Source: Mycobacterium kubicae
GTDB lineage: Bacteria > Actinomycetota > Actinomycetes > Mycobacteriales > Mycobacteriaceae
Assembly (NCBI RefSeq): GCF_015689175.1
Contig: NZ_CP065047.1
Location: forward strand, 4,898,001 to 4,962,000
Reading direction: 5' to 3'
Length of the DNA: 64,000 nucleotides
Part shown: positions 28,893-50,863 of the stretch, one piece after another
Layout: every line of letters begins with the position of its first letter
Numbering within the stretch: the first letter of the stretch is position 1
Notes under the pieces: generated by a model
Seen by the model: only the letters and a program-made list of their open reading frames with translations
Told to the model about the DNA's origin: nothing
The model's database searches: none
Made by a program: the position numbers and the translations under genes

Positions 28893-30320
28893 GTGCCCGC
28901 AGCCATTTCCATACATTTCTTTTTGGAGCTGACCGTCATCCTCGCGACCTGTCGTTTGGTCGGGCTGGTGGCAAAACGCTTCGGACAACCTCAAGTCGTC
29001 GGCGAAATGATTGCCGGTGTACTGCTCGGTCCTTCCCTTTTGGGCAGCATCGCGCCCGGCTTACAACACCATCTCTTCCCGCCGGGCCACACCAACATCG
29101 TGTTGTACACGGTGGCCCAAATCGGCCTCGTGCTGTACATGTTTCTCGTCGGACTCAATTTCGATGTGAACTTGATCAAACACCGTGCCGGCACTGCCGC
29201 CGCCGTTTCAGCAGCGGGCATCGTGGTTCCTCTGCTTCTGGGGGCGCTTATCGCCGTCCCGCTCTTGGCCAGCGGAATTTTCTTCACAAAAAGCGTCACG
29301 CTCGTGATGGCAATGATGTTTCTGGGCGCATCGATCGCAACGACCGCTTTCCCCATGCTGGCCCGGATCATCTTCGAGACGAAATTGTCCGGAACGCCGC
29401 TGGGCACCCTGGCCCTGGCCTGCGGTGCCGCCGATGACGCGCTGTCGTGGTGCATCCTGGCCACCGTCCTGGCCATTCACCGCGGCAGCCCGACCGTGGC
29501 GGCGACGGCGATAATCGGCGGGCTTGTCTACACCGTGCTCTCGCTCACGCTGGGACGAAAGGCATTTCGCGGCCTCGGCACGATATCGGAACGCCGCAAC
29601 ACCGTAACCCCCTCGATGCTCTGCACCGTCCTCGTCTTGCTCATGGCGTGCGCCTGGTTCACCGACACCACCGGTATCTACGCCATCTTCGGCGCCTTCA
29701 TTCTCGGTGTCGCCATGCCGTCCGGTTTCTTCGCCGAGCACGTCACCGTTACCCTCGAACCGCTGGTCACCACATTTCTGCTGCCGTTGTTCTTCGTCTA
29801 TTCCGGGTTGAACACCCAGATCGGATTACTGAACAGTCCAAAACTGTGGGCGGTGACAATCGGAATACTTGTCGTGTCGATTGCAGGAAAAGGTGTCGCG
29901 TGCAGCCTGGCTGCGCGATTGCGAAAAGTCCCGCTGCGGGAATCGATCGCGTTGGGATCTTTGATGAACGCTCGTGGTCTGATCGAACTCATTCTGCTGA
30001 ATATCGGACTCGAAGCGGGAATCATCACCCCGACGCTGTTCACCATTTTGGTGTTGGTAGCCATTGTCACCACGCTGATGGCCACGCCGATTTTCGAATT
30101 CGTATACGGCCGGCACCGGTCGGGAAGCGATCAAGTGCAACCAAAACGTTCGACGATCTCGTGGTGGCCAGGGGCGGGATCGAACCGCCGACCTTCCGCT
30201 TTTCAGGCGGAGTTCTGGCCTACACCAATGTGTTTCAGCCGGTCAGACCAGAAGCGCAACCGGCATTCGGACGTGTTGGATCAGTCGGTCTGGCTCGTTG
30301 GCCCCATGTTGGCCCCATGA
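28893..30320 (+). CDS. cation:proton antiporter (CPA2), C-terminus read through att site
   Basis: A membrane protein with 11-12 hydrophobic segments matching CPA2 antiporters: 'GQPQVVGEMIAGVLLGPSLLG' and 'YMFLVGLNFDV', 'GAADDALSW' (paired Asp of the ion site) and 'NARGLIELILLNIG'. The family-like part ends near residue 405. The last 60 or so residues are antisense reading of a tRNA-Phe fragment ('WWPGAGSNRRPSAF') and then island DNA, so the present C-terminus is partly artificial. It is divergent from the halogenase. A role in self-protection or ion homeostasis for the PKS locus is a guess. Confidence 0.82.
   Translation: MPAAISIHFFLELTVILATCRLVGLVAKRFGQPQVVGEMIAGVLLGPSLLGSIAPGLQHHLFPPGHTNIVLYTVAQIGLVLYMFLVGLNFDVNLIKHRAGTAAAVSAAGIVVPLLLGALIAVPLLASGIFFTKSVTLVMAMMFLGASIATTAFPMLARIIFETKLSGTPLGTLALACGAADDALSWCILATVLAIHRGSPTVAATAIIGGLVYTVLSLTLGRKAFRGLGTISERRNTVTPSMLCTVLVLLMACAWFTDTTGIYAIFGAFILGVAMPSGFFAEHVTVTLEPLVTTFLLPLFFVYSGLNTQIGLLNSPKLWAVTIGILVVSIAGKGVACSLAARLRKVPLRESIALGSLMNARGLIELILLNIGLEAGIITPTLFTILVLVAIVTTLMATPIFEFVYGRHRSGSDQVQPKRSTISWWPGAGSNRRPSAFQAEFWPTPMCFSRSDQKRNRHSDVLDQSVWLVGPMLAP
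30162..30211 (-). other. tRNA-Phe 3' fragment (attachment-site remnant)
   Basis: On the minus strand this reads as the 3' part of tRNA-Phe: anticodon stem TCCGC/GCGGA with loop CTGAAAA (anticodon GAA), T-stem GGCGG/CCGCC with loop TTCGATC, acceptor strand CCTGGCC, discriminator A and encoded CCA. The 5' acceptor strand and D-arm are missing; identity stops exactly at the start of the anticodon stem. This is the usual footprint of a tyrosine-integrase element in a tRNA gene, where one end keeps only the 3' part. Confidence 0.85.
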
Positions 30321-30352
30321 GATAACCCAATCTGCGTGGCAAGCCGATCGGG
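30281..30352 (-). pseudogene. possible integrase C-terminal remnant
   Basis: A 23-codon stretch before a stop reads '...LSHGANMGPTSQTD', similar to the 'GANMGPT' tails of actinobacterial phage-type tyrosine integrases. A stop codon lies directly upstream. Its position 70 bp from the att remnant is where the int gene of such an element would be. Nothing of the catalytic domain is left, so the call rests on a short motif plus location. Confidence 0.35.
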
Positions 30353-30540
30353 TTACTTGGTCGGTAGAAGCGGACTTGGGCGAAGTCTTAGTGCGATGGT
30401 TTTCGCTTACCGAACAGAGCGCGGCGGTCCCGGCGGATCTCATAGAGACGCCAACTGAACTATCGACCGCAACTGAAAGGCTGGATGCAGTCCAATTTGC
30501 TTGCGTGTGGTCCGATGGGCACCACCGCGCGCATCCCAAT

Positions 30541-31212
30541 CTAGAGCAGTTTCACCGGCGCTGGCTCAAGCACTAGGCCCCACGGCGTGGTGACGTTGAG
30601 GAGCGGTTCGGGCGGCGGGTCGGTGAGCGCGATGGGGTCTCCGGCCAAGCTCGCGGTGCCGCGCCCCTCGAAGAGTGCGACGCAAGCGTTGCCGTCCAGG
30701 CGGGACGGGAACCGGACGGCGCCGGCGCCTCGGTCAAAAAGGTCCGCGGCGATCGTCTGCGTGATGGCGCGGCGACTGGTGGTGATCTCGCGCAGATCGA
30801 GGTGCTGCAGGTCGTGCTCGAGCAGCAGTTCGACGTGGCGATCCTCGATCTCCTGGCGTGTGGGCACGTCGGTGAGATCGATCAAGGGGCCATCGAGCTT
30901 CAGGACTGTGGGAACGAGGGCGTGCTGTATGCGCCACTGCGCAGTGACCGGCTTCTCAGTGAAGTCTTGGGCAGCCTCAGGTCCGTAGCGCTCAACATGG
31001 CGGCGCAGCGCGCCGAGGTTCGGCCGGAAGTCGGCTAGCACCTCGCGAAGACACGTTTCCGCCAAGTCAGCACAATAGAGCGTGCGGAACCGGCGGTAGA
31101 CGTCGTCGAAACGGTGACTGAACTGGTACAGCTCCAGCGGAGTGAAGCCGAGCGGGTCAGCGTAATAGCCGACCCGCCACAGGGTTCGCCCCTGCTCGGG
31201 CGCCGCGATCAC
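30541..31212 (-). CDS. RES-domain toxin (MbcT-like NAD+ phosphorylase)
   Basis: A 223-residue RES-family protein. The pattern 'TLWRVGYYADPLGF...QFSHRFDDVYRRFRTLYCA' followed by 'AETCLREVLADFRPN' gives the conserved Arg, Tyr and Glu of RES toxins, which degrade NAD+ by phosphorolysis. The GTG start at 31212 overlaps the antitoxin stop (GTGA), the usual coupled layout with the antitoxin first. It is longer than MbcT of M. tuberculosis (about 186 residues). It is the first intact gene of the island after the att site, a stabilising position. Confidence 0.8.
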   Translation of the reverse strand: MIAAPEQGRTLWRVGYYADPLGFTPLELYQFSHRFDDVYRRFRTLYCADLAETCLREVLADFRPNLGALRRHVERYGPEAAQDFTEKPVTAQWRIQHALVPTVLKLDGPLIDLTDVPTRQEIEDRHVELLLEHDLQHLDLREITTSRRAITQTIAADLFDRGAGAVRFPSRLDGNACVALFEGRGTASLAGDPIALTDPPPEPLLNVTTPWGLVLEPAPVKLL

Positions 31213-31604
31213 GACTGGAAGCTGGCGACCTGCCGTGCAGCCCGGACAACCATCGCGAACTCCGCGGTGTCGACCGCCGCACCGAGCACCTCGATCGGCG
31301 CGCGATCGTCCAAGCGCGTGTTGGTGCCAAACAGCCACGCCCGCGCCGTCTTGTCGTCGTAAGCATCGACGAGCATCCTGACGACCTTGTAGCCCTCACG
31401 TAACCGGCGCTCGGTCGCGCCGTGAGGTTCCGGGCCGCCCTTGCGCGCGTAGCGGCCGATTTGCTTGGCGTCAGCCAAGCCCGCCATCGCCGCCGCGACG
31501 CGCTGGCCGACGGCCTCTTGCAGATACGCGGCGATCTCGCGGATCGAAAGCGTCGCTGCCTCATCATCAAGCCGCTGCGCCGCAGAGACGGTCAAGACTG
31601 GCAT
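31209..31604 (-). CDS. Xre/MbcA/ParS-type antitoxin
   Basis: A 131-residue partner of the RES toxin. A helical N-terminal part is followed by 'EGYKVVRMLVDAYDDKTARAWLFGTNTRLDDRAPIEVL', of which 'ARAWLFGTNTRLDDRAPIE' is the hallmark of MbcA/ParS toxin-binding domains. The ATG at 31604 has GGAGGTGCGAT upstream; longer frames would only add unconserved residues. The protein should bind the toxin active site and repress its own promoter; four CCTGA-type repeats lie directly upstream. Confidence 0.82.
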   Translation of the reverse strand: MPVLTVSAAQRLDDEAATLSIREIAAYLQEAVGQRVAAAMAGLADAKQIGRYARKGGPEPHGATERRLREGYKVVRMLVDAYDDKTARAWLFGTNTRLDDRAPIEVLGAAVDTAEFAMVVRAARQVASFQS

Positions 31605-31625
31605 ATCGCACCTCCACGTTGATCT

Positions 31626-31679
31626 ACCTGAGACGCTACCACATAAACACCTGAGAACACACCCTGAAGCTACACCTGA
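31626..31679. promoter_or_regulatory. four direct repeats upstream of the MbcA-like antitoxin
   Basis: The hexamer (A/C)CCTGA on the plus strand (TCAGGT on the minus) starts at 31626, 31649, 31662 and 31674, spacings of 23, 13 and 12 bp, that is one or two helical turns. It covers the expected promoter of the toxin-antitoxin operon and is a candidate autoregulatory site. Confidence 0.45.
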
Positions 31680-31680
31680 T

Positions 31681-32048
31681 AGCCACCAGGCCTGGCCTAC
31701 GGTTCGCGGTTGGAGCCGTTGAATCAGCATGTTCGCGCAAAAATGCCGCCAACGACGCCGCTCACTGGCCACGATTCGACCTCTAAGGTATGAGCTAACC
31801 GGTCACCGTCTCCTCCAGTGCGCACGGTCTCATAGCTGCACGTCAGCGAGGTTCAGCCGTTCCCGCTGTGACGCTCCGTCCCTCTTGTTCGCATCGGTTC
31901 CACCGTGTTCTGTGGCCAAATCCGTGGCCATTCCAACAGCCATAAGTGGGCCCATGCGCAACCCGCGGCGCGAGCCGTCGCGGGTGACACGATTACAGAT
32001 AAGCCGCGAACGTCACCACGAGAAGATCGGCGAGCGCGTCCGAGCCAC
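31681..32048. other. no gene recognised
   Basis: About 370 bp between the antitoxin promoter and a decayed gene. Frames are short and show no family pattern on either strand. The composition is less GC-rich than the neighbours. Confidence 0.4.
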
Positions 32049-32321
32049 CTAGGCGTAGAGACTCATCCACCGTGCGATGGTCGGCTCCATGCGCTCGGGC
32101 ACGAGCGAATCCGCGTCCCGTTGATCCCGCCGTACGTTCCTGTCGGGGTCGCTGAGCAACCAGATGGTTCGCGCCGATGTCTCCATCGCCGAACGGCATA
32201 GTTGCATTATGGACGACGCGTAGAGGTTCCTCGTCGTCGTCCGTTGATCTACGAGCAACGCGGCCGCGTACAGGTTCTCCGTGGCGCTCATCATCGGAAT
32301 CAAACACTCCTCGGTGACCGC

Positions 32322-32358
32322 TGTCCGTTATAACCGGATCTGGGGCATTCTCAATGAA
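32322..32358 (+). repeat. left terminal inverted repeat of the vapBC element
   Basis: 37 bp beginning TGTCCGTTAT and ending GGGGCATTCTCAATGAA. Pairs with 33085-33121 with two mismatches (positions 11 and 14 from the outer end). It is directly preceded by ACCGC. Confidence 0.88.
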
Positions 32359-32405
32359 GGCGAGGTCAACGCACTATCTGAACGATATCGTGATAGCATC
32401 GCTCT

Positions 32406-32657
32406 GTGGCGCAGATTCTCATCCGTCAACTTGAGGACGACACCAAGGCCAAATTGCAGCGACTAGCCCGTCAACACGGTCGCAGCACCGAGGAGGAGGT
32501 GCGCGAGATCTTACGGAACGCAGTCCGGCACGTCGATAATCCGCCTGGGCGGCTCGGGTCTCGTATCGCGTCACGCTTCAAAGGCGTGGGCCTGACCGAG
32601 GACATACCCGAACTGCGGGGACAGCCCGTCCAGCCGGCACAGTTCAACGAATCATGA
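32406..32657 (+). CDS. vapB: VapB/FitA-type antitoxin (ribbon-helix-helix)
   Basis: An 83-residue protein with an N-terminal ribbon-helix-helix ('AQILIRQLEDDTKAKLQRLA', then 'GRSTEEEVREILRNA'), as in FitA antitoxins, and a C-terminal tail for the PIN partner. GTG start. Its stop overlaps the toxin start (ATGA). The promoter must lie between the left terminal repeat (ends 32358) and 32406, so the repeat itself may provide promoter sequence. It is carried inside the miniature transposon. Confidence 0.87.
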   Translation: MAQILIRQLEDDTKAKLQRLARQHGRSTEEEVREILRNAVRHVDNPPGRLGSRIASRFKGVGLTEDIPELRGQPVQPAQFNES

Positions 32658-33070
32658 TCGTGCTGGACACCAATGTGCTCTCCGCGTTGATGCGGGACAC
32701 ACCCGATCCGGCCGTCGTGGAATGGCTCGATAATCAGCCCACCGAATCAATCTGGACGACATCGGTAACAGTATTCGAGATACGCACTGGTATTGAACTT
32801 TTGACGCCAAGCCGCCGACGCAAGCGGCTCGACGAGATCTTTTCTCAACTCCTCGACGAAGACCTTGATGGTCGTGTGCAATCCTTCGACCTGACGGCTG
32901 CGTTTGCCGCTGGGACCATCGCCGCCACCCAACAACGAGGTGGGCGTGCGGTGGAAATTCGTGATGTGCAGATCGCCGGCATCGCCGCGTCCCGGCACGC
33001 AACTGTGGCTACCCGCAATACTCGCCACTTCGACGGAACGGGCGTCGACCTGGTCAACCCCTGGGACTGA
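32654..33070 (+). CDS. vapC: VapC/FitB-type PIN-domain toxin
   Basis: A 138-residue PIN ribonuclease. It has the first acidic residue in 'MIVLDTNVLSALMR', Glu in 'VFEIRTGIELL', and Asp in 'EIRDVQIAGIAASR', giving the metal-binding acidic cluster, and ends 'RNTRHFDGTGVDLVNPW', the typical FitB tail. It should cut specific RNAs unless bound by VapB. It ends 14 bp before the right terminal repeat at 33085, so the element is almost nothing but repeats plus this operon. Confidence 0.9.
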   Translation: MIVLDTNVLSALMRDTPDPAVVEWLDNQPTESIWTTSVTVFEIRTGIELLTPSRRRKRLDEIFSQLLDEDLDGRVQSFDLTAAFAAGTIAATQQRGGRAVEIRDVQIAGIAASRHATVATRNTRHFDGTGVDLVNPWD

Positions 33071-33084
33071 CGTCGTGCCCCAGA

Positions 33085-33121
33085 TTCATTGAGAATGCCC
33101 CAGATCCAGTGATAACGGACA
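33085..33121 (-). repeat. right terminal inverted repeat of the vapBC element
   Basis: Reverse complement of 32322-32358 with two mismatches, followed directly by ACCGC, the second copy of the 5-bp target duplication. Confidence 0.88.
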
Positions 33122-33329
33122 ACCGCCGCATCCCCCGCCGGCACTAAGGGATACGCCTCCTTAAAAGCGGCGTCGTCGCCGACAAACGGGCTCCCCGGCT
33201 CAGGATGGTGCGGGTGCAGTCCCCACTGCCGCAATTCCGCGCACGCTTGGCACGGTTGCCGATGCGGTCCAGCACGCCGTTCGTCGCCAAATTGACCAGT
33301 GCTTCTATCATCTGCTGATCCGGCTGCAT

Positions 33330-33861
33330 AACGAGTCTCCTATTACAACACCAAACACGCCCTGGCTGCGCGGTACGTTCACAATGCACCTGTCCAACGA
33401 CAAGTCCGGGGTGTTCAAGGGCGCGCCGGCCATTGAGTAACAATTGCGACGTTGCATTTCGTAAGGCGGACGCCCGCGTTGGAGTCTGGGACCTAAGGGG
33501 ACAATCGGCTTCCCACGCAGCGACTTCCACGTCAGGCAGCGGATTATCGAAGGTGTCGGAAACTGAGAGATTCTGTAGCTGGCCGAATTGACGCGGTGTG
33601 TTTGTTGAAGCTTGCATATCGGGCGGCGGTGGCTCGTCCCAAGCCTTCGCCATCAACGTCGGATCGTCGAGGTCTCGGCAAGCGTCGGCTGCTCGGCGGA
33701 GCTGTTCCGCTGTCATCCGTTCTGCAGGCTTGTGCCGCGGTGCCTTATCGGACATTGGTGACCCTGAAGATCTCTGATCGTAAGCGGATGGGCGTAGGTT
33801 GAACTCTATCTTGGTGGTCAATTCGTCACGGTGCCAGTTCTCCCCAGTTGCGTCCAGCAGA
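33330..33861. other. no clear gene; possible minus-strand fragment
   Basis: The minus strand is open from 33755 (ATG, MSDKAPRHKPAERMTAEQLR) in the same frame as the split hypothetical gene. The first 60 residues look protein-like (helical, D/E-K/R balanced, 'AADACRDLDDPTLMAKAWDE'), the rest does not. It may be the remnant of a second small hypothetical gene. Confidence 0.3.
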
Positions 33862-33970
33862 GTGGTGTACGAGCCGGTGATGACCGGCGTGTCGTAGCCG
33901 GATGAATGAAGGTCATCGCGTGATTCTTCGAGGGACCGACCAAAGTCACTCGAGCAAAGGAATCAACGCG

Positions 33971-34985
33971 ATGACCATTGCCCACGATATCGACCTGTCT
34001 GCCGTGCTGGCCGAACGACTCACCACCACGCACCCTGATGTGCTGCGCGAGTTGTTGGCCGCCTTCATTCACGCCCTGATGGGCGCCGAAGCCGACGCGG
34101 TGTGCGGTGCCGGCTACGGCCAGCGCAGCAGCGAGCGCACCAATTCCCGCAACGGGTATCGGCACCGCGAGTTTGACACCCGCGCAGGCACATTGGATCT
34201 GGCGATTCCCAAGCTAAGGCAAGGTTCGTACTTCCCGGACTGGCTGCTGGAACGGCGCAAACGCGCCGAGCGGGCCCTGACCACGGTGGTGGCTACCTGC
34301 TACCTGCTGGGCGTTTCGACGCGGCGGATGGACAAACTCGTCGAGACTCTGGGCATCACCAGCTTGTCGAAGTCCCAGGTCAGCGTGATGGCCAAAGAGC
34401 TCGACGCCGCGGTCGAGGCGTTCCGGACCCGGCCACTGGATGCAGGCCCGTACACGTTCATGGCTGCTGACGCCCTGGTGCTCAAGGTTCGCGAAGCAGG
34501 CCGGGTGGTCAACGTGCACGCGCTGATCGCCACCGGGGTCAACGCCGAGGGCTACCGCGAAATCCTGGGCATCGACGTCACCACCGCCGAGGACGGGGCC
34601 GGCTGGCTGACCTTCCTGCGGTCGCTGACCGCCCGCGGCCTATCAGGGGTCCGTCTGGTCACTTCCGACGCCCACGCCGGTCTGGTGGCCGCGATCGGCG
34701 CCACCCTGCCTGGGGCATCGTGGCAACGGTGTCGCACCCACTACGCCACCAACCTGATGGCCATCACTCCGAAATCATCGTGGCCGTGGGTACGCACACT
34801 ACTGCATTCGGTCTTCGATCAACCTGACGCCGGTTCCGTTGCAGCCCAATATGACCGCATCATCGACGCACTGGCCGACAAGCTCCCCAAGGTCGCCGAC
34901 CACCTCGAAGACGCCCGCGCCGACCTGCTCGCCTTCACCGCCTTCCCCAAACAAATTTGGCGGCAGATCTGGTCCAACAACCCAC
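33971..34985 (+). pseudogene. IS256-type transposase, 5' part (split gene)
   Basis: Starts MTIAHDIDLSAVLAERL with AAAGGA upstream and has the Mutator/IS256 pattern: 'RNGYRHREFDTRAGTLDLAIPKLR', 'VTSDAHAG' with the second catalytic Asp, 'WQRCRTHYATNLM'. At 34985 the conserved 'IWSNNPQERLNKEI' is cut after SNNP; the rest is at 38135. The two parts add to 1,236 bp, an exact 412 codons, so the split is clean and the gene was intact before the insertion. Confidence 0.85.
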
Positions 34986-35100
34986 TATCCGTTAACCGGC
35001 TCTCCGGGGACACGGTTCGGGCTGCAGCGTGAGGTTCACGCACAAGCGCTGAGCACGGATGGATGCTGTCTGCATCTCGGTGGGGGAAGGCGGAGCGGCG

Positions 35101-36150
35101 ATGCGGGTACTCAAGAGCGACAGCGGATATGTCCTGGAGGGCGACTGGGACGGGCAGGACGCGGTGAACGCGTTTCTCAACCATTTGGCGGGACGGGGGT
35201 TCAGCGCGGCCACGGTGCGGGCCTACGCATTCGACGTCGCCAATTTGAGCCGGTTCCTCGTCCAGCAAGCGGTCGGGCTCGCCGCGGTCGATGCGCCGTT
35301 GGTGTTCGACTGGATCGACTGGCAAGGCGTCCGCCGAACGGACCAGCCCACCGGCGGTCACCGCTCGTCGACCCCGCCGGCAGCTTCGACGGTGAACCGC
35401 CGGGTCGCGGCAGTGCGCGCGTTATTCGAGTATCTGGTGATGACCGGTGTCTGCACCGACAATCCGGTGCCGTCGCCGCGGCGGGGACAGGGGCTGCGCC
35501 AGTCGCAGCGGGGGTTGCTCGGTCATCTGGGTCCCGGGCGTGCACGCAGTGGCGGTAGGTTGGTGCGTCAGCCGCAGCGTCTTCCGGAATCGTTGTCCAC
35601 CAACGATGTCGACGCGTTCCTGGCGACACTGGCAACGCACCGGGACCGGGCGATGGTGCTGGTGATGCTACTCGGAGGGCTGCGTTCGGCCGAGGCGCGT
35701 GGCCTGCTGCTCGCCGACGTCGATATGGGCCGGCGCCGGCTTCGGGTGATCGGCAAGGGCGGCAAGGAACGTCATGTCCCGGTCGATGCGGCGTTCTTCA
35801 CCGAGCTCGCCGCCTACCTGCGATGGGAGCGGCCGCCGGGGTTGGCGACGCCGCAGTGCTTCGTAGTGCTGCGCGGCCCGACGACCGGTGCACCGGTCAG
35901 CGAGGCCGGGCTGCGCAGCCTGTTCCGTCGGCACCGGGAGACCTCTGGCGCCACAAGAGTCCGCCCGCACCGTTTACGGCATACCTACGGCACCGAATTG
36001 TCGGCGGCCGGAATCGATCTGCTGGCGTTGCGGGCGTTGATGGGGCATGTCTCGCCGGAGACCACGGCCCGCTACGTGCATTTGTCGATCGAGCAGCTCG
36101 CCGCCGAATACGGTGCTGCTCGTGCGACGTTGGCCGGAGCCCGGCAGTGA
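35101..36150 (+). CDS. tyrosine recombinase, TnpA-like (Tn554 type)
   Basis: 349 residues from the ATG at 35101 (MRVLKSDSGY; an ATG 42 bp upstream is possible). N-terminal SAM-like domain, then the catalytic set: Arg in 'LGGLRSAEARGLLL', Lys in 'GKGGKERHVP', 'PHRLRHTYGTEL' (HxxR), His in 'LMGHVSPETTARYVH' with the nucleophilic Tyr. It resembles XerC-type enzymes and Tn554 TnpA (361 residues). The stop overlaps the next gene (GTGA). Confidence 0.85.
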   Translation: MRVLKSDSGYVLEGDWDGQDAVNAFLNHLAGRGFSAATVRAYAFDVANLSRFLVQQAVGLAAVDAPLVFDWIDWQGVRRTDQPTGGHRSSTPPAASTVNRRVAAVRALFEYLVMTGVCTDNPVPSPRRGQGLRQSQRGLLGHLGPGRARSGGRLVRQPQRLPESLSTNDVDAFLATLATHRDRAMVLVMLLGGLRSAEARGLLLADVDMGRRRLRVIGKGGKERHVPVDAAFFTELAAYLRWERPPGLATPQCFVVLRGPTTGAPVSEAGLRSLFRRHRETSGATRVRPHRLRHTYGTELSAAGIDLLALRALMGHVSPETTARYVHLSIEQLAAEYGAARATLAGARQ

Positions 36151-38090
36151 CCACGGTGTTGGTCGGCCAACCCGTAGGCGCCGACGAGGTGGTGGCGGAT
36201 TATCTCGACCACGTCGCCACCCTGGGTTTGAGCGGGCGGGCGGTACGCGACCGGATTCGGATCGCTCGCGACTTCACCGCACGCCACCGCGACCTGCACG
36301 CCTGGATGACGCTGCCGGCAGCCGAGCGGATCGCCGAGATACGGGACACCGGGGCGTGGCCGCTGATCTGTCACACGATCGGCACCGGCCGGTTACGGCT
36401 GGACGTCGAGCTGGCCGCGGTCAAACAGTTGACCGGGCTGGGCCGCGCAGTGGAGGACCGGGATCCGAGCGGATTCGCCGCGTTGCGGAATGCGGGAATT
36501 CGGTTGGGCTGGAGGAGTTCCTGGGTCGAGACGGTCCTCGGCGAATGTCTGGCGGTAGTGCTGGCACACCACGGCGGAATGGTCGCCGACCTGACCGGCG
36601 ACGCGCTCGACGACTTCGACGCCGCGCTGTCACGTACCGTGGTGCCGCCATCGTCGCGGCGGGCATACAGGGGGCGGCTGGCCAGCCTGCGGCAGCTGTT
36701 GTTCGAGACCGCGGTCATCGACACCGCGCCGAAACGCCGGCGGTGGGCCCGTAGCCTCGAGCAGCGCTTCACCGAGGTGGAGATGCCCGACCCGATCCGT
36801 CAGACGTTGCTGCGCTACATCGGCGTGCGCGCGGCGGTGCTGCGGCCCAAATCGGTCGAGTCGCTGATCAACGACCTGCTGCCCTTCGCCGAATACCTCA
36901 CCGCTCACCATCCCGACGTCATCAGCCTGCGTGAACTCGACCGGAGCTGCATCGAGGGCTACCTGAAATGGAATCGCACCCGGGGCTGGCGTGGTCAGCG
37001 CGCCGCCGCGGGCGCCGGGCGCACCGTCTCGGCCGCGGTGGCCCAGTCGGCAGTGCTCAGTCTGCGCAACCTGCTCGACGACATCACCGCCTGGGGCTGG
37101 GCGCAGGCCCCACCACGGCGGTTGGTATTCGCCGCCGACGTCCCCAAACTCGACCAGCCGTTGCCACGCGCGCTAGCACCCGATGTGGACGCGGCAGTGA
37201 TGAACGCCGTTGCCCACCTGCAGGATCCGTTCGCCCGCATCGGCCTGACCGTGCTGCGTGGTGCCGGCCTGCGGGCGGGGGAACTGCTCGACCTCGAACT
37301 GGGCAGCATCATCGACTACGGACCGGCCGGAACCTGGCTGAAGGTGCCACTGGGCAAGCTCGCCACCGAACGCATGGTCCCGCTCTCCGCCGCGACCCTC
37401 GCCGCGCTCGACGAGTGGGTCGCCCTCCGCGGCACGCACCGGCCGCTGCCGCACCCACGCACCGGCGTGCTCACCGACTTTCTGTTCACCCGGCACGGAC
37501 GCCGCCTGGGCTACACCCGGCTGCGCAACGGGCTGCTCACCGCCGCTGAATCCGCCGGGTTGCACCGTCCCGACGGCGGCGTCCTGATGGTCACTCCACA
37601 TCAGTTGCGCCACACCTGGGCCACCGAACTCGCCAACGCCGGGATGAGTCTGCAGGCCTTGATGTCCTTACTCGGGCACGTCACTCCACAAATGACGATC
37701 CGCTACGCCACCCTGGCCTCGCCCACCCTGCGCGCGGCCTACGACGAAGCGATGGGCAAGATGCGCCGCCAGTTCACCCTCACCCCGGTCGGCAAACCGA
37801 TCCTGCCCGACAAGGTCGGCTGGCTGCACAGTGAAATGCTGAAAACCCGCGTTGCACACGGATACTGCGCTCGCCACGAATCCGCGGGCGCGTGCCCTTA
37901 TGCCAACATCTGCGAAACCTGCGACAACTACGTCACCGCCCCCGAATTCCGCGACACGCTCACCGACCAACTCGCCGACGTCCAGGCCCTCAGAACCGAC
38001 GCCGAGTGCCGCGGCTGGACCGACGAAGCCGCCCGCCACGACCGCGTCGCCCACGCCCTTACCGACCACCTCCAGCGCCTCGATCGATGA
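36147..38090 (+). CDS. tyrosine recombinase, TnpB-like (Tn554 type), with Cys-rich tail
   Basis: A 647-residue recombinase with a long N-terminal part (about 300 residues, two core-binding-like halves) and a C-terminal catalytic domain: Arg in 'RGAGLRAGELLDL', Lys in 'PLGKLATERMVPL', 'TPHQLRHTWATELA', His in 'LLGHVTPQMTIRYA' with Tyr. After the catalytic domain comes 'GYCARHESAGACPYANICE' and 'TCDNY', a probable zinc-binding knuckle. Length and layout match Tn554 TnpB (630 residues). Translationally coupled to the upstream recombinase. Confidence 0.85.
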   Translation: MTTVLVGQPVGADEVVADYLDHVATLGLSGRAVRDRIRIARDFTARHRDLHAWMTLPAAERIAEIRDTGAWPLICHTIGTGRLRLDVELAAVKQLTGLGRAVEDRDPSGFAALRNAGIRLGWRSSWVETVLGECLAVVLAHHGGMVADLTGDALDDFDAALSRTVVPPSSRRAYRGRLASLRQLLFETAVIDTAPKRRRWARSLEQRFTEVEMPDPIRQTLLRYIGVRAAVLRPKSVESLINDLLPFAEYLTAHHPDVISLRELDRSCIEGYLKWNRTRGWRGQRAAAGAGRTVSAAVAQSAVLSLRNLLDDITAWGWAQAPPRRLVFAADVPKLDQPLPRALAPDVDAAVMNAVAHLQDPFARIGLTVLRGAGLRAGELLDLELGSIIDYGPAGTWLKVPLGKLATERMVPLSAATLAALDEWVALRGTHRPLPHPRTGVLTDFLFTRHGRRLGYTRLRNGLLTAAESAGLHRPDGGVLMVTPHQLRHTWATELANAGMSLQALMSLLGHVTPQMTIRYATLASPTLRAAYDEAMGKMRRQFTLTPVGKPILPDKVGWLHSEMLKTRVAHGYCARHESAGACPYANICETCDNYVTAPEFRDTLTDQLADVQALRTDAECRGWTDEAARHDRVAHALTDHLQRLDR

Positions 38091-38134
38091 ACATCCCACC
38101 CCGACGGGTTGACCCGCCCCCGAGGGCCGGATAA

Positions 38135-38355
38135 AAGAACGACTCAACAAGGAAATCCGCCGGCGCACCGACGTCGTCGGAATCTTCCCCGACCGCAACG
38201 CCCTAATCCGCCTCGTCGGCGCGGTGCTGGCCGAACAACACGACGAATGGGCCGAATCCCGCCGCTACCTCGGCCTCGACGTCCTCAGCAAATCCCGCGC
38301 CGACCACACGCCATCAACAGAACAGGAGGACACCCCGGCGGCACTGACCGCCTAA
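38135..38355 (+). pseudogene. IS256-type transposase, 3' part (split gene)
   Basis: Continues the split transposase: '[19 protein letters not shown]', '[17 protein letters not shown]', then a Ser/Thr/Glu tail and TAA at 38355. The E of 'NPQERLNKEI' is the third residue of the DDE triad in IS256 enzymes. The codon for Gln is shared between both sides of the insertion. Confidence 0.85.
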
Positions 38356-38441
38356 ACCACCAAGTCGAAGAATCACACGACGACGTCGTACACCACGTCC
38401 CTGGACTTGACCTTCTCCCCTGCCGCGTAACACTCGGAAAG

Positions 38442-38517
38442 ATGGCAAACGACATGTGCCACAGTCGGGAGCAGGCGGAGCAGGTCAAGGCTAGGTTGGC
38501 CGAGTGGCTGGCGCCAC
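38442..38517 (+). pseudogene. group II intron reverse-transcriptase remnant
   Basis: About 25 codons reading 'ANDMCHSREQAEQVKARLAE' plus 'WLAP', close to the segment following the YADD motif in many group II intron reverse transcriptases. It is not derived from the two intact introns in this window, whose RT differs here. Neither end is preserved. Confidence 0.45.
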
Positions 38518-38813
38518 CAATGGTCGGGACGACGGCACTGACTGAGCGGCACCGCCCGCAGACCGCCGGCATCAAGCGAATGGCTCGGCCGTATAACCAC
38601 GCGCTGACCGTCGCATATCTCTGCCCCACCTGTGAGAATTGAGCTGACAAGGCAGCTAGAGACGGATAGGTCCCTTTGTGAGCACCGATGGCCGCGAGCC
38701 TGACGACGAGGCCGGCGCGGAGTTCCTGAACGGCTTCGTCGATAGGTTGATTCTCGGGGGCGGGCGTGTGGACATGGGCCGCCGGCGCTCCGAACCAGTT
38801 GCGCCACCATAGC

Positions 38814-38836
38814 ATGTAGTACAACTATGTAGTACA
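38814..38836. promoter_or_regulatory. direct-repeat operator of the second vapBC
   Basis: ATGTAGTACA occurs twice, at 38814-38823 and 38827-38836, separated by 3 bp. It ends 8 bp before the antitoxin ATG at 38845 and overlaps the likely -10 (TACATTAT). Each repeat is nearly self-complementary. Likely bound by the VapB-VapC complex. Confidence 0.6.
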
Positions 38837-38844
38837 TTATTGGT

Positions 38845-39117
38845 ATGAGTGAAGTACCTCTCCGAATGCTCAACCAAGAGACGGCAAAGGTCTTGGCCCG
38901 CGTCAAGCGTGGCGAAGAGATCACGCTTACTGAGCGCGGGGAAGTCATCGCCCGAATAATCCCCGCTACCGCCGGCCCACTGGATGCGTTGATCACTGCC
39001 GGCAGAGTGCAACCGGCGACGCTGGCCGGCCCAGCCCCGCGGCCGACCGTTCCGATGCACGACAATCTCGACGCCGGCGCGCTATTGCAACGTCTGCGCG
39101 CCGAGGAAAGGTATTAG
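38845..39117 (+). CDS. VapB-type antitoxin (Phd/YefM fold)
   Basis: A 90-residue antitoxin: 'VPLRMLNQETAKVLARVKRGEEITLTERGEVIARIIP' is the Phd/YefM DNA-binding half (key part 'GEEITLTERGEVIARI'). A disordered Pro/Ala-rich linker and a C-terminal helix 'ALLQRLRAEERY' would block the PIN active site. It is followed after 3 bp by its toxin. It is unrelated to the RHH antitoxin in the miniature transposon. Confidence 0.88.
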   Translation: MSEVPLRMLNQETAKVLARVKRGEEITLTERGEVIARIIPATAGPLDALITAGRVQPATLAGPAPRPTVPMHDNLDAGALLQRLRAEERY

Positions 39118-39120
39118 CCG

Positions 39121-39528
39121 GTGATCTACCTGGATACCTCGGCTCTGGTCAAGCTGATCCGGATCGAAGTCGAATCTGATGCTCTAGCTGACTGGCTCGA
39201 TGAACGCACCGAAACACGTTGGATAACATCTGCCTTGGCTGAAGTGGAGCTCCCCAGAGCCATCCGCGCAGTCGCCCCAAATGGCTTATCTGCTGTCCCC
39301 TCTGTGCTGGCCAGACTGGATCGGTTCGAAATCGACCAGGTCATCCGCGCCACCGCGGCCGCCTACCCCGATCCGGCGCTGCGCTCGCTCGATGCGATAC
39401 ACCTGGCCACCGCTCAAATCGCCGCATCCACAGCACCATTGACCGCCATGGTCGCCTATGACAGTCGACTCAGCGACGCCGCCCGTGCCCTCGGGATAAC
39501 GATTGTCACACCTGGAAGAAACTCATGA
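39121..39528 (+). CDS. VapC-type PIN-domain toxin
   Basis: A 135-residue PIN protein: Asp in 'MIYLDTSALVKLIRIE', Glu in 'ALAEVELPRAI', 'LRSLDAIHLATAQ' and 'VAYDSRLSDAARALGITIV' supply the four acidic metal ligands. GTG start. Expected to be a site-specific RNase. Its stop overlaps an ATG at 39525, but the next gene more likely begins at 39549. Confidence 0.9.
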   Translation: MIYLDTSALVKLIRIEVESDALADWLDERTETRWITSALAEVELPRAIRAVAPNGLSAVPSVLARLDRFEIDQVIRATAAAYPDPALRSLDAIHLATAQIAASTAPLTAMVAYDSRLSDAARALGITIVTPGRNS

Positions 39529-39548
39529 ACGGCTCAGGAGGAGAACAC

Positions 39549-39890
39549 ATGTCAGCACGTTTCTATGATGAGACCGTTTTTCAAGCGTGGCAGCGCGGTG
39601 TAGAGATCGCCGGTCCCCGATGGTTCGCCGACGGCCAGACTTCCCCGGACAGCGCGACCAGCAAGTGGGATCTCTCGCCGAGGGTCGACGAGATCCGATC
39701 AGCTATCGGATGGCTGTCCTCGGGCGAAGCGATGTTCCTTGCGGCGATGGTGAGCTTTTACAACTCTGAGCCCGGCGGCGAACTCTTGCGATCACTTGGC
39801 GCAAATGGCCTCAGCGACATTGCTGCCAGCCTCGACGAATCACGCCGACAAGTCATCGCCGACCTGCCCCTTGCCTACGCCGGCTGGTGA
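39549..39890 (+). CDS. hypothetical protein linked to vapBC
   Basis: A 113-residue protein starting MSARFYDETVFQAWQRGVEI, with AGGAGGAGA 9 nt upstream. Acidic, mostly helical by appearance, with 'AIGWLSSGEAMFLAAMVSFYNS' in the middle. No known domain is recognised. It is in the same orientation, 20 bp after VapC, so it may be co-transcribed and could be an accessory or a passenger. Confidence 0.6.
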   Translation: MSARFYDETVFQAWQRGVEIAGPRWFADGQTSPDSATSKWDLSPRVDEIRSAIGWLSSGEAMFLAAMVSFYNSEPGGELLRSLGANGLSDIAASLDESRRQVIADLPLAYAGW

Positions 39891-39950
39891 AAACCTCGCC
39901 GGCCGTCACTCCCACGGCTTCCCGCTACAACCCGCCGCAAAGGACAACCC

Positions 39951-40256
39951 ATGGCTGACCTGCCAACTCGTCCCGAACTATTCGAGAACGCCCGCGCCTG
40001 CATCGACGAAGTGAGATCAGCGCTCAGCGCGGCGCGCGACTGGCTGCGCTCGGACTGGCAGCTCCTGGGCACACCACTGACTAAGGAGGCCGGCCAAGCT
40101 CGGGTGGCCATTTTGGAATCGATCGGCGAGGCCAAGGACCTCATCGACGCGATGAAGCGCACTGCAGCCTCGATGAAGCGGCGCAGCACGGCGTTGCGAG
40201 CGCGCGGCAGAAACGCCAGGCGACCGCGCTGTCTGGTGCGCCGCGCAGCGCGATGA
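39951..40256 (+). CDS. hypothetical protein, helical
   Basis: A 101-residue protein. The first 75 residues are strongly helical ('ENARACIDEVRSALSAARDW', 'ILESIGEAKDLIDAMKRTAA'). The last 25 are Arg-rich and may result from decay. It follows the previous hypothetical gene by 60 bp on the same strand. No domain recognised. Confidence 0.5.
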   Translation: MADLPTRPELFENARACIDEVRSALSAARDWLRSDWQLLGTPLTKEAGQARVAILESIGEAKDLIDAMKRTAASMKRRSTALRARGRNARRPRCLVRRAAR

Positions 40257-40673
40257 ACCGCCCGCCTTGCCCGCCGCGACCCGTTGCCGACCTGGTGGCC
40301 GGATGTGAACGGGCGCTGGCTCGAAGATGGTGGAAGATGGTGACCGCAAGACATCGTGCGTTGCGTGGTGGACCGCCCGTCACGCCTCAATCACGAACTT
40401 TGCGACTGGGCGCGCGCACCAACACTTCATGCTCGGCATCATGGGTGGCCGCTTCAGGCGCCAGGCGTGTTCGGCAGCCGACCGTCATACCCGCCGACGA
40501 GCGGTCGCCCGGCCACGATGTGCGCGACTCGGGCGACCGGTCCCAATCACCAAGCAAACGTCCTCTCCCGAGGCTTCGGGGTGCGTCATCCGCTTGCCCC
40601 GCATGTCGACATCCGTTGCTGCGCGGCTAGCGGCCACGCCAGTCAAATGTCGATTCCCGCTGCGGTGCCTACC
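40257..40673. other. no gene supported
   Basis: Several frames are open because of high GC, but none shows a family pattern or a consistent codon bias. A frame beginning ATG at 40253 (MNRPPCPPRPVADLV) overlaps the upstream stop and could be a shortened third gene of that unit. Confidence 0.35.
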
Positions 40674-41012
40674 TCAAAATCCCGGCAATCCCGGCAGGGT
40701 GAAACCACCGCCCGCGCCGGTGGAAGCGCCGCTCCCAGCGCCGCCCGGACCGGTCAAACCGCCCGACGTGCCAGTACCGAAGCCGCCGCCATTGTCGTTG
40801 AAAGCACCGGACCCGCCGGTCGACGCCCTGCCCCCACCGATCGGGGTGGACACTCCACCAGACCCGCCGCCCCCAACTGTGATCCCTGGGTCTGGCTCAT
40901 CCGCCCAGGCAGCGCCCGCGCTGGCTATCGGGATGAGCCCGGCGGCCAAAGCTGCACCTGCGGCCATGCCGAGCTTGATCGTGATACCGCGGCGTCGTGT
41001 CTTGCAAGTCAT
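40674..41012 (-). CDS. secreted glycine-rich protein
   Basis: A 112-residue protein starting at the ATG at 41012, with GGAGGGG 4 nt upstream. The Arg-rich start (MTCKTRRRG), hydrophobic core 'AGAALAAGLIPIASAGAAWA' and an AxA site make a strong signal peptide. The mature part (about 75 residues) is mostly Gly, Ser and Pro with 'GGGGSGG' and 'GGGFGTGTSGGLTGPGGAG' repeats and no Cys. Small secreted Gly-rich proteins are common in mycobacteria and of unknown role. It has a long AT-rich upstream region. Confidence 0.7.
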   Translation of the reverse strand: MTCKTRRRGITIKLGMAAGAALAAGLIPIASAGAAWADEPDPGITVGGGGSGGVSTPIGGGRASTGGSGAFNDNGGGFGTGTSGGLTGPGGAGSGASTGAGGGFTLPGLPGF

Positions 41013-41089
41013 GTTCCCCTCCGAATTCATGGATCATTAGATGATCGCGTTATGATCGGCGCACTTGTCGTGCGTTGCACAGTCACTTA

Positions 41090-41530
41090 GGTGGTAATGG
41101 GGCTCACCTCCATTCCCACAACTGGATTCCCACAACTGGTGATAGCAATGCCACCAGCTGTATGAACTTTGGCTATGCAATGCAGCTTAGCTACTACAGA
41201 AAGTGAGCGTCAAGCCAATTGGGCTACCTTGTTTGCAAAGTGATTCATATTCATAAATTCAGTGTTTCAGTAGACACTGACTTCCACACCTACAATCGTA
41301 TATTGCAGCAGTTCAACAACCATGTACTGGTGTACTGACATGCGCCAATTCGCGTCTGCGTACTTACTGATATCGAGCACAACGTGAATCATTCAGGCCA
41401 GAGTCTGACTTGATTACGATTATCAGAGTTTCAAGGTGCCAGCAAACTAGACTTACTCGGTTGGTGCCCGATATCTGCAGAAACCTTTCTTCCTAGAATT
41501 CAGTATCGCTGTTGGCCAAAAATCGCTCCC
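41090..41530. other. AT-rich non-coding tract
   Basis: About 440 bp at clearly lower GC (around 45% by eye) than the surroundings, with no open frame of note and stops in all frames. It includes the tandem repeat at 41112-41139. It may be the upstream region of the secreted Gly-rich gene, a foreign segment, or decayed phage DNA. Confidence 0.5.
41112..41139 (+). repeat. tandem 14-bp repeat
   Basis: ATTCCCACAACTGG twice in direct succession, at the edge of the AT-rich tract. Confidence 0.85.
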
Positions 41531-41992
41531 TGCGTAGTCCGATCAGCAGTCACACCTCGCCGCGTGCACCTAGACCGTCCCCAACACAGGGCCTCAGCAG
41601 ACGCCCGCCGGCAACTCATCGCCGACGACGCGCGAGGGGTGCCGCGCCTCACCTTGGGCCCAAGTGCAGGACCCCTCATTGATCCGCGTACTGATATGCA
41701 GATCTACTGAAACGCACCCGAAGAGGGGATCGCCGCAATGAGCACCGGCCGCAGCCGCATCGAATCGAGCGCCGCACCGTCCCACAGAAACACCGCGGCT
41801 GCCACCCCGCCCTCACCTACAGGCACCGGGCCGACCGAACGCCTCATGACCATCCGGTAGACAGGCGACCAACGAACACGCCGAACCGTCGACCTATCAC
41901 TTGGCACACACCCGGGTCTTGACATCTGGCAGCGAGATGCCGCCGACCGCCTCGGACTCGCAGGATGCAGGCGGAAATAACCGGATTCTTCT
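41531..41992. other. no gene recognised
   Basis: GC rises again. Short frames only. The right end merges into an enoyl-CoA hydratase remnant. Confidence 0.4.
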
Positions 41993-42190
41993 CTGGACAA
42001 GCTCGACGCAATCCACGCCGTCCTGCATCGCTTCCCCGTGTACAAGCCGATCATCGCCGCGGTCAACGGCACTTGCGTGGCGGGCGGATTCGAGATGTTG
42101 AGCTCCACCGACATCCGAGTGGCCGTGCCCGACGCACGATTCGCGGTGATGGAGCCGAAGCGCGGTCTTTTCGCAGTGTCTTGCCCGTGA
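41993..42190 (+). pseudogene. enoyl-CoA hydratase remnant
   Basis: About 65 codons without an N-terminus: 'IHAVLHRFPVYKPIIAAVNG', 'TCVAGGFEMLSSTDIRVAVP', 'ARFAVMEPKRGLF', then a stop. This is the oxyanion-hole half of a crotonase-fold protein. The upstream half and the C-terminal third are gone. It is unlike the hydratase at 5526, so not a recent copy of it. Confidence 0.75.
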
Positions 42191-42291
42191 GGACACTCGC
42201 GGCGGCAAGGGCACCGCCGATCGTGACGTAATGACTTAGGGCCGGTCCACGCGGCAGAGGTGTGAGGTGTTGACGACGGGGTGGGTTCTAC

Positions 42292-42750
42292 TCAACGTCG
42301 CAACACCGACGGATCACTCGAGACTAACAGGGCAGCGAATAGATCGGCGGGGCAACGGTCTTGGAGGACTATGCGGGGGCGATGGTTGAGTTCGTGTTCG
42401 ACGGCCAACAACTGCTCCGGCGGGTGGCTGATGAGGGTGACGCCCTTCGGGAAGTAGTCGCGCAGCAGTCCGTTGGTGTTCTCGTTCGTGCCGCGTTGCC
42501 AGGGTGATCTGGAGTCGCAGAAGTAGACGGGCGCGCCGAGCTTGTCGGTGGTGGCAAGGTGGCGCGCCATCTCGGTGCCCTGGTCCCAGGTGATCGACCG
42601 CATCAGCGTGGGTGGCAGATCCTTCATGCGGGCCACCAAGGCCGCGTGCAGGGAGTCGGCGTCACTGCGAGGCAGATGCACCAACCGCAGCATCCGGGTC
42701 TGGCGTTCGACCAGAGTGCCGATCGCCGAGAGGTGGTTATTACCGATGAT
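42292..42750 (-). pseudogene. IS30-type transposase, 3' exon
   Basis: Second exon of the interrupted transposase: 'IIGNNHLSAIGTLVERQTRM', 'SITWDQGTEMARH' (second Asp) and 'WQRGTNENTNGLLRDYFPKG' (third acidic residue), then a stop at 42292. It joins the first exon (44936-45733) exactly: 798 + 459 bp = 418 codons plus stop. If the intron splices, the transposase would be intact. Confidence 0.85.
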
Positions 42751-42814
42751 GTAGGGGTCGGACCGGGGCGCGGTGCCGGGATTGCTCCTGGCCCGTTTCC
42801 CCGGCCCGCCCTCC

Positions 42815-42850
42815 GCACCGGACGTGCGACTCTCGTCGCATCCGGCGCTC
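42815..42850 (-). ncRNA. group II intron domain V, copy 1
   Basis: Minus strand: GAGCGCCGGATGCGACGAGA followed by GTCGCACGTCCGGTGC, a 34-36-nt hairpin with the AGC catalytic triad and a GAGA-type tetraloop, the most conserved part of group II introns. Domain VI and the 3' splice site follow within 65 nt. Confidence 0.85.
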
Positions 42851-42865
42851 CACGGACTGCCACCG

Positions 42866-44377: not shown

Positions 44378-44935
44378 GCACGAGGCTTTCCCCCGCTCGG
44401 ACTACTACGGCCCCTCCGCCCCACCGCGTGGCCATCGACAGACGACGCGTCAACCCGGATTCGGCGCCCTCGGCTGAGGACGACGACACGGGAGCCTCGC
44501 GATGGTTCCCACGTTCACTGCTGACCGCTCGAGGAGGGAGGTGCCCAGCTATGCCCCTGCGATATCGCCACGGCTACGCCGCAGGCATTCACCGTGGCCT
44601 CCAGCGGCAGCGACCTAAACCGCAGCCGGAGTTCCCAACACCGAGACGCCAGTGGTGTTGGTGCGCATCGCAGACCAGCCCGAATCCACCGGGTTAGAGC
44701 TGGCGGGAGACTTGAGAGGCGTTAAAACACTGGTTCCTCGCGTACACCTTCTCCTCATGCTTGCCGGACCCAGGCCATCCGGTAGTGCCGGCCTGTCCCG
44801 TCGTTGTCGGGGCTGCTTACCACCCTCGCCGGCGTCTCCCGGTCCAGGCTGCCCCCAGCTTCGTTACGCTGCTGCGACAGCACAACGGCGCAGGTCTCTC
44901 ACCTCCGCTCGGTCACACAGCGCCTCGTGGCGCAC

Positions 44936-45733: not shown

Positions 45734-45777
45734 AACCTCCAGAATCTAGAGAAGTGTTGCGACCGCACCTAGAAACC

Positions 45778-46057: not shown

Positions 46058-46074
46058 GAATTCCGCCTCCTAGC

Positions 46075-46482: not shown

Positions 46483-46483
46483 T

Positions 46484-47925: not shown

Positions 47926-48120
47926 CGCAAGCGAACGATCGATCTGCGCGACGAGTTGGGCAACCCGGTCGATCCCGGTTCTCACTGCTAATTTCCTTTC
48001 GTCGTTTGTCTCATTCGGTCCAGATTCGGGCCGAATGCTGCGTTGTTGTTGGTGTTCATGGTCGGGCGGGTGGTGCGATTAGGTGTTCTGGACCGGATGC
48101 GACAAGCTGCTGTCGGCGTT

Positions 48121-48710: not shown

Positions 48711-48711
48711 G

Positions 48712-50848: not shown

Positions 50849-50863
50849 CGGTGGCAGTCCGTG

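What the first reader, a model, noticed from the sequence alone, without database searches (positions are those of the whole stretch)
32317..33126. A miniature transposon whose only cargo is a complete vapBC pair
37-bp inverted repeats (2 mismatches) at 32322-32358 and 33085-33121 are flanked by the 5-bp direct repeat ACCGC on both sides. Between them is nothing but a coupled antitoxin-toxin operon. Taking out the element and one ACCGC joins two fragments on the minus strand into one frame (...AGDAAVTEECLIPMM...), direct proof of an insertion into a gene. Repeat length and 5-bp duplication match Tn3-derived miniature elements (TIMEs), which are usually empty or carry other cargo. A toxin-antitoxin pair as a self-contained, trans-mobilised unit would be a minimal selfish element.
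Basis: partly seen in the sequence, partly recalled or inferred. Interest (0 to 1): 0.87.

Follow-up and report, generated by a model that had tools for sequence, protein, structure and literature searches.

The report
Tn7-like mini-transposon carrying only vapBC
An 800-base piece of DNA in a mycobacterium looks like a stripped-down jumping element that carries nothing but a toxin-antitoxin gene pair and would depend on the enzymes of larger Tn7-like transposons to move; an unrelated toxin-antitoxin pair was packaged the same way in related species.

Summary
In detail: 37-bp inverted repeats (35/37) bound an 800-bp unit holding vapB-vapC, flanked by ACCGC on both sides. The Tn3/TIME label is wrong: the ends (TGTCCG plus 20-nt units, consensus TTCTCATTGAATCTGGGGCA) are those of mycobacterial TnsA-B-C-TniQ (Tn7-like) transposons. 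This copy is one insertion: 8 of 396 genomes of the genus have it, all with the same flanks, because it rides in a near-identical block of about 30 kb. Past mobility is supported by relatives of the same vapBC at other sites beside worn ends and by a second mini-element class with an unrelated VapC21-like vapBC, at three sites with three different 5-bp duplications. M. nebraskense carries both minis and a TnsABC-TniQ helper; nine other genomes with copies show no close full-length TnsB. Most vapBC-1 homologues, 17 of 22 loci, have no such ends. Verdict: a non-autonomous Tn7-like element with TA-only cargo, apparently packaged twice. Activity of ends and TA pair is inferred.

The parts
32317..32321 (.). 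5-bp target duplication ACCGC, left copy
   Evidence: matching 5-bp flanks also at 8 of 10 other end pairs
32322..32358 (+). left inverted repeat, 37 nt
   Evidence: 35/37 match to the right arm
32328..32347 (+). 20-nt unit like a TnsB binding site (first unit)
   Evidence: 5 mismatches to the autonomous-element unit
32348..32358 (+). first 11 nt of a second unit, cut short
   Evidence: the pFLAC0070_1 relative has a full-length second unit with 3 mismatches
32406..32657 (+). vapB antitoxin, FitA-like RHH, 83 aa, GTG start
   Evidence: Pfam PF22513 E 4.2e-16
32654..33070 (+). vapC PIN-domain toxin, 138 aa, FitB-like
   Evidence: Pfam PF01850 E 9.7e-14; PDB FitB 2h1c E 7.8e-19; dN/dS 0.04-0.22 for vapB and vapC across six copies
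33076..33095 (-). 20-nt TnsB-type unit (second unit of right end)
   Evidence: 1 mismatch to the autonomous-element unit
33096..33115 (-). 20-nt TnsB-type unit (first unit of right end)
   Evidence: 3 mismatches
33085..33121 (-). right inverted repeat, 37 nt
   Evidence: right end matches the TnsA-side end of the 10,347-bp element at 40 of 46 nt
33122..33126 (.). 5-bp target duplication ACCGC, right copy
32124..32321 (-). downstream piece of the interrupted host gene (hypothetical protein)
   Evidence: homologue L191 residues 174-239
33122..33305 (-). upstream piece of the interrupted host gene, with a frame change
   Evidence: homologue L191 residues 114-135 and 137-178; the second alignment runs on to 33112
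30162..60797 (.). horizontally shared block (probable integrative island) in which the mini-element rides
   Evidence: near 100% identity to pieces of G622 and G592 as far as 60797, and to shorter pieces of other carriers, interrupted by later insertions; left edge at 30162-30163

Best explanation
The 800-bp unit is a non-autonomous mini-transposon of the Tn7-like (TnsA/TnsB/TnsC/TniQ) type whose only cargo is a FitAB-like vapBC pair. TnsB (with TnsA) of a related full-size element would bind the 20-nt units in both ends and cut next to the TGT/ACA termini, and TnsC/TniQ would direct insertion, leaving the 5-bp duplication. It inserted once into an already mobile block of about 30 kb and has since been carried between species by that block. 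Other lineages of the same vapBC, and an unrelated VapC21-like vapBC, were packaged between the same kind of ends and inserted elsewhere. The TA pair is kept by selection while the ends decay. Shown: anatomy, duplication, end homology to TnsABC elements, several sites, purifying selection on vapBC-1. Inferred: TnsB binding, trans-mobilisation, TA activity, addiction as the reason for retention.
For: Anatomy. The same terminus and 20-nt units bound a 10,347-bp TnsA-B-C-TniQ element in G197 (two copies) and stand at the TnsA end of a M. aubagnense plasmid element with 99.9% TnsB identity. Matching 5-bp flanks at 8 of 10 other end pairs. Second class: 859 bp, duplication CCAGC (M. nebraskense); 856 bp, CTTGG (G592); 835 bp, GCGCT (G452); VapB2 and VapC2 align over 76 and 137 residues without a stop in the two further copies; VapC2 has no BLASTP match to VapC1. 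vapBC-1 relatives beside worn ends at other sites. A helper of the matching type beside both minis in M. nebraskense.
Against: The intact 800-bp unit is seen at a single insertion site (8 of 8 carriers of 396). 17 of 22 vapBC-1 homologue loci have no end-like sequence (7 or fewer mismatches of 26, within 150 nt, facing the pair) beside them. In 9 other genomes with copies of either class, no close full-length TnsB was found; the best is 34% over residues 67-454, and G450 has two short fragments at 67-72%. The window's own TnsB is 50% identical to the helper, and its three regions show no unit with 5 or fewer mismatches. No DNA-level empty site was found. The left end has only one and a half units. 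The helper's TniQ was not recognised by Pfam or NCBIfam.
Confidence: 0.85

Rival explanations
1. Tn3-derived miniature element (TIME) with vapBC cargo, as first proposed.
For: IR length near 38 bp and 5-bp duplication; the TIME paper reports 5- or 6-bp duplications and imperfect 40-bp IRs for one derivative (passages of PMC4133298).
Against: The full-size elements with these ends encode TnsA/B/C and a TniQ-like protein, and the ends contain repeated 20-nt units. A direct alignment with Tn3 IRs was not made.
Confidence: 0.03
2. A relic, not a mobile unit: the insertion happened once, the helper is gone, and the vapBC is now a fixed stabiliser of the 30-kb block.
For: Same flanks in all 8 carriers; no close full-length TnsB in the 9 other genomes searched; ends worn in relatives while vapBC is under purifying selection.
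Against: The ends of the window copy are intact (35/37), and M. nebraskense has the unit with the same ends and flanks together with a helper of the matching type. This differs from the best explanation only in the present state, not in origin, so the two confidences overlap.
Confidence: 0.45
3. Chance bracketing: two solo Tns ends of separate insertions flank a native vapBC.
For: Tns-type ends do occur next to each other (L147: an end of the chimaera type 2 bp from the worn left end; L179: two ends 75 bp apart); most vapBC-1 homologues have no ends.
Against: Near-identical arms in inverted order with a matching 5-bp duplication; three more vapBC minis with matching duplications.
Confidence: 0.03
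4. Member of an IS21/IS481-type IS family rather than Tn7-like.
For: The TnsB has weak NCBIfam hits to IS481 (58 bits, cut-off 224) and IS21 (22 bits, cut-off 160), as expected for shared rve folds.
Against: Both hits are below the curated cut-off; TnsA (290 bits, cut-off 110), TniB-type TnsC and PDB TnsB matches point to Tn7-like.
Confidence: 0.04

Closest known systems
Tn7-like transposons of Actinobacteria (clade described in PMC8649781; passages read)
   Same: Arrays of about 20-bp repeats at both ends; homologous ends bound TnsA-B-C-TniQ elements; PIN toxins are listed as cargo of 251 transposons in its set of 6,549.
   Different: Here no tns gene at all, 0.8 kb against reported median lengths of 14-29 kb; that survey's pipeline required tnsB, so such elements would be invisible to it.
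TIMEs, Tn3-derived miniature elements (PMC4133298; passages read)
   Same: Non-autonomous, IRs near 40 bp in one derivative, 5- or 6-bp duplication.
   Different: Different transposase family and ends; the simplest TIMEs are 262 bp, and the TA system described in the passages seen is in autonomous Tn4662a.
Mobile insertion cassettes (named in PMC4133298) and prokaryotic MITEs (review PMC10969869; passages read)
   Same: Terminal repeats of an autonomous element, no transposase, moved in trans; a MIC carries a passenger gene (recalled).
   Different: The term antitoxin does not occur in the main text of the MITE review; no TA-only example appeared in the listings of the searches named in the report.
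TA modules of Tn3-family transposons (PMC7157771; passages read)
   Same: TA pair carried by a transposon; a PIN-domain toxin (PIN_3) is found 13 times there.
   Different: There the TA pairs sit in Tn3-family transposons with transposition genes; here the pair is alone.
TA gene cassettes of integrons (recalled, no call)
   Same: Minimal TA unit moved by an enzyme supplied in trans.
   Different: Site-specific recombination at attC, not transposition with target duplication.

Membership tests
Tn7-like transposon (autonomous) | encodes a TnsB-family transposase | tested here: not met
   only vapB and vapC recognised inside; no TnsB hit at E 1 or better in the 800-bp or 859-bp unit
Tn7-like transposon (autonomous) | arrays of about 20-bp inverted repeats at both ends | tested here: met
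   two units at the right end, one and a half at the left
Tn7-like transposon (autonomous) | 5-bp target duplication (recalled for Tn7) | tested here: met
   ACCGC/ACCGC; 8 of 10 other pairs
non-autonomous derivative of the mycobacterial TnsABC-TniQ family | ends homologous to a full-size element of the family | tested here: met
   right end 40/46 and left end 34/46 against the TnsA-side end of the 10,347-bp element; best elsewhere in the window 25/46
non-autonomous derivative of the mycobacterial TnsABC-TniQ family | mobilised by that element's proteins | not testable with these tools
   co-residence with a helper seen in M. nebraskense; no close full-length TnsB in the 9 other genomes searched
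TIME (Tn3-derived) | ends homologous to Tn3-family IRs, moved by Tn3 TnpA | tested here: inconclusive
   ends belong to TnsABC elements; no direct alignment with Tn3 IRs was made
mobile insertion cassette / cargo-bearing MITE | no transposase, IRs of an autonomous relative, passenger gene | tested here: met
type II TA, VapBC (FitAB branch) | antitoxin gene overlapping a PIN-domain toxin gene | tested here: met
type II TA, VapBC (FitAB branch) | toxicity neutralised by the antitoxin | not testable with these tools
   only purifying selection seen, dN/dS 0.04-0.22

The most novel reading that the evidence does not exclude
TA-only mini-transposons are a recurrent class of selfish element: unrelated vapBC pairs have repeatedly become the sole cargo between Tns ends, parasitising the transposases of Tn7-like elements for movement and using addiction instead of transposition genes for persistence, so that they outlast their helper.
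Probability: 0.4. Interest if true: 0.75.

Novelty: new variant of a known kind. Interest (0 to 1): 0.62.

Why it matters
It gives a natural case in which a toxin-antitoxin pair is the whole payload of a transposon, seen with two unrelated pairs. That makes the old question whether TA pairs are selected as parts of mobile elements or as host genes directly testable: the ends, a candidate helper and worn copies with conserved TA genes are all in hand. It also shows that surveys of Tn7-like cargo that start from tnsB miss a non-autonomous layer; both sub-kilobase elements that I could pair (in 24 of 63 stretches) carry TA pairs.

Tried and rejected
Tn3/TIME: rejected, because the ends belong to TnsABC-TniQ elements. 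IS21/IS481: NCBIfam hits far below cut-off. Helper in the window's own genome: three TnsB copies at 50% identity, but no unit with 5 or fewer mismatches in the regions around them, so it is not taken as the helper.

Empty site by DNA: 396 genomes with window 31990-33560 gave carriers, vapBC without the flanks, one end without vapBC (G423) and short pieces of the flank gene (G648, G478, G509), with no contiguous empty site. 61 genomes with the G452 site gave, besides G452 itself and vapBC-2 copies, only flank pieces. The plasmid search with the G592 site gave vapBC-2 or flank pieces, none covering 80%. The M. nebraskense site was not searched, because one search failed. Only protein-level uninterrupted homologues were found. 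Phage records: no match. tRNA scan of the window: none. The first collection scan found nothing because I had put one N too many in the pattern.

Rows dropped: I paired ends only on the loci that I entered by hand (24 loci of 63 stretches); single-ended stretches and contigs that are the element itself, without flanks, were left out. The L032 copy in G197 has no matching duplication (flanks) and is not among the 10 pairs. Two of those 10 pairs fail: M. rhodesiae 85282-95628 and M. fortunisiensis 78217-81740. L029 and L005 are the same M. lentiflavum place and were counted once.

Full report
What is there. Window 32322-33121 is an 800-bp unit with 37-nt terminal inverted repeats (35/37, mismatches at positions 11 and 14) flanked by ACCGC on both sides. 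Inside lie vapB (32406-32657) and vapC (32654-33070), overlapping by 4 nt. VapB is a FitA-like ribbon-helix-helix protein and VapC a PIN protein; its best matches among solved structures by sequence are the FitB entries 2h1c, 2h1o and 2bsq. G+C of the unit is 59%, of the window 65%. In its own genome the unit occurs once.

What kind of ends. Each end begins TGTCCG followed by a 20-nt unit; the right end has two units in direct succession, the left one has one and the first 11 nt of a second. It encodes a TnsA-like protein (NF033179, E 1.1e-86), a 693-aa protein with a Mu-transpos_C match and an rve match below Pfam's cut-off that matches PDB TnsB chains (Tn6677 TnsB E 5.8e-11), a TniB-family ATPase (E 9e-17) and a fourth protein that neither library recognises; its counterparts in M. 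nebraskense and M. arenosum share 42% over 271 aa with a protein annotated as TniQ family in a M. avium plasmid element. The cargo reads as mercury and metal functions (my reading of the ORFs, not searched). A M. aubagnense plasmid has this TnsB at 99.9% identity and the same TnsA-side end. The right end of the vapBC unit matches the TnsA-side end of this element at 40 of 46 positions, the left end at 34 of 46; the best place elsewhere in the window reaches 25. These are therefore Tn7-like ends, not Tn3 ends.

Duplications. Of 10 other facing end pairs examined in named genomes, 8 have identical 5-bp flanks. The G197 copy examined has none (flanks).

One site, many species. Of 396 genomes of the genus, 71 have at least one match to the 26-nt end pattern with at most one mismatch, and 8 have the pair 800 bp apart; the control, the pattern read backwards, matches once each in 3 genomes. 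All 8 match the window over 1,416-1,571 nt with flanks, at 100% as printed. Named carriers are M. helveticum, M. nebraskense, M. scrofulaceum, M. parascrofulaceum and Mycobacterium sp. WUMAC-067 (both ends, same flanks) and M. gordonae (one end in the stretch held). The reason is a larger block: from an edge at 30162-30163 the window is near 100% identical to the pieces of these genomes that I held, in G622 and G592 as far as 60797, with later insertions in between, while the DNA left of the edge differs between the four genomes printed. The block moved horizontally, and the unit with it.

Was the unit itself mobile? Three lines say yes, in the past. First, it interrupts a gene: 3 of 8 uninterrupted natural homologues align on both sides of the unit, L191 (419 aa) at adjacent residues; the host gene also carries frame changes, so it is decayed. 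Second, the same vapBC occurs at other places beside worn ends of the same type: M. chimaera plasmid pFLAC0070_1 (left end with two units, right end reduced), G648 (both ends worn) and G579 (right end only); I saw no matching duplication at the two of these that keep traces of both ends. Third, M. nebraskense has an 859-bp unit with ends of the same family, duplication CCAGC, and as only recognised cargo an unrelated pair: a VapC close to M. tuberculosis VapC21 by sequence (PDB 5sv2, E 1.3e-25) and a VapB-type antitoxin scoring slightly below Pfam's cut-off. VapC1 and VapC2 give no BLASTP alignment. Two further copies of this second class, 85% identical, lie at other sites with other duplications: CTTGG in G592 and GCGCT in G452, the latter with one terminus altered to TGG; VapB2 and VapC2 align without a stop in both. 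A third genome, G418, has the pair with one end found.

Against a tight bond between pair and ends: of 22 distinct vapBC-1 homologue loci, 17 show no end-like sequence facing the pair within 150 nt; the five that do are G648, G579, G696, pFLAC0070_1 and a truncated copy in G641 (the window-type copies are not in this count). The pair is thus mostly found without ends, as captured cargo would be.

Census of short elements. Among the 63 stretches, the two-ended elements under 5 kb that I could pair are four distinct insertions: the vapBC-1 unit, the vapBC-2 unit, a 2,991-bp element in M. frederiksbergense (reading as a TetR-type regulator, an oxidoreductase, a TnsA and fragments of TnsB) and a 3,524-bp element in M. 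fortunisiensis, whose flanks do not match. Both of those under 1 kb carry only a vapBC pair. This is a small sample, and pairing was done for 24 of the 63 stretches.

Helper. M. nebraskense DSM 44803 holds both TA minis and a 10,348-base contig that matches the 10,347-bp element at 99.96-100%, with TnsA, TnsB, TnsC and TniQ 100% identical to those of G197 over the parts aligned (the contig is held as two stretches, L071 and L108). In 9 other genomes with copies (seven with vapBC-1, one of these also with vapBC-2, plus G452 and the partial copy in G418), no close full-length TnsB was found; G450 has two short fragments at 67-72%. The window's own genome has three copies of a TnsB at 50% identity, in regions without a unit of this type. 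These carriers thus look stranded.

Selection. Across six copies of vapBC-1, dN/dS is 0.04-0.22 in all 30 gene comparisons, including copies whose ends have worn away. The TA genes are kept after mobility is lost. Selection on vapBC-2 was not computed.

How it probably works. Tns proteins from a full-size element act in trans on the two ends, TnsB on the 20-nt units, and insert the unit with a 5-bp duplication. After arrival the TA pair makes loss costly, for the host or for the carrier replicon. The first part is inferred from end homology and duplications, the second from conservation and from the general behaviour of VapBC pairs (recalled). Neither was tested experimentally.

Relation to print. 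PMC8649781 (passages read) defines Tn7-like transposons by TnsB and end arrays of about 20-bp repeats, lists PIN toxins in 251 transposons and required tnsB in its pipeline. TIMEs (PMC4133298, passages), TA pairs of Tn3 transposons (PMC7157771, passages) and prokaryotic MITEs (PMC10969869, passages; the term antitoxin does not occur in its main text) are the nearest kinds. A TA-only mini-transposon of the Tn7-like kind did not appear in the listings of ten searches (the listings show titles and the start of abstracts, and one search listed 15 of 393 papers); that library lacks most subscription papers.

Verdict. Real, correctly observed, misfiled as Tn3. It is a new variant of a known kind (cargo-bearing non-autonomous transposon), with the notable point that two unrelated vapBC pairs were packaged alone between Tn7-like ends.

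Noticed in passing
window 30162-60797: Block near 100% identical between several mycobacterial genomes; its left edge begins with what reads as the 3' part of a tRNA gene (my reading; ARAGORN finds no complete tRNA), and two tyrosine recombinase ORFs lie at 35059-38090.
   Followed up: partly
window 42866-44377 and 49337-50848: Two 503-aa reverse-transcriptase-like ORFs (group II intron type by reading), apparently identical, in opposite orientation, inside stretches absent from G622.
   Followed up: no
L147 1397-1400; L179 12987-13062: TA mini-elements sit 2 bp and 75 bp from an end of another Tns-type element, which suggests a target preference near existing ends.
   Followed up: no
L157 (G696) 1501-2214: A vapBC only 73% identical to the window's also stops just inside a Tns end, of another unit subtype (CTGAGGCA).
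   Followed up: partly
G000:C1 5213484, C2 26997, C3 14264: The window's genome holds three copies of another TnsB; L043 and L045 show repeated GGTTGCGA motifs near the TnsA side where the TTCTCATTGAATCTGGGGCA unit would be expected.
   Followed up: partly
   Followed up: no
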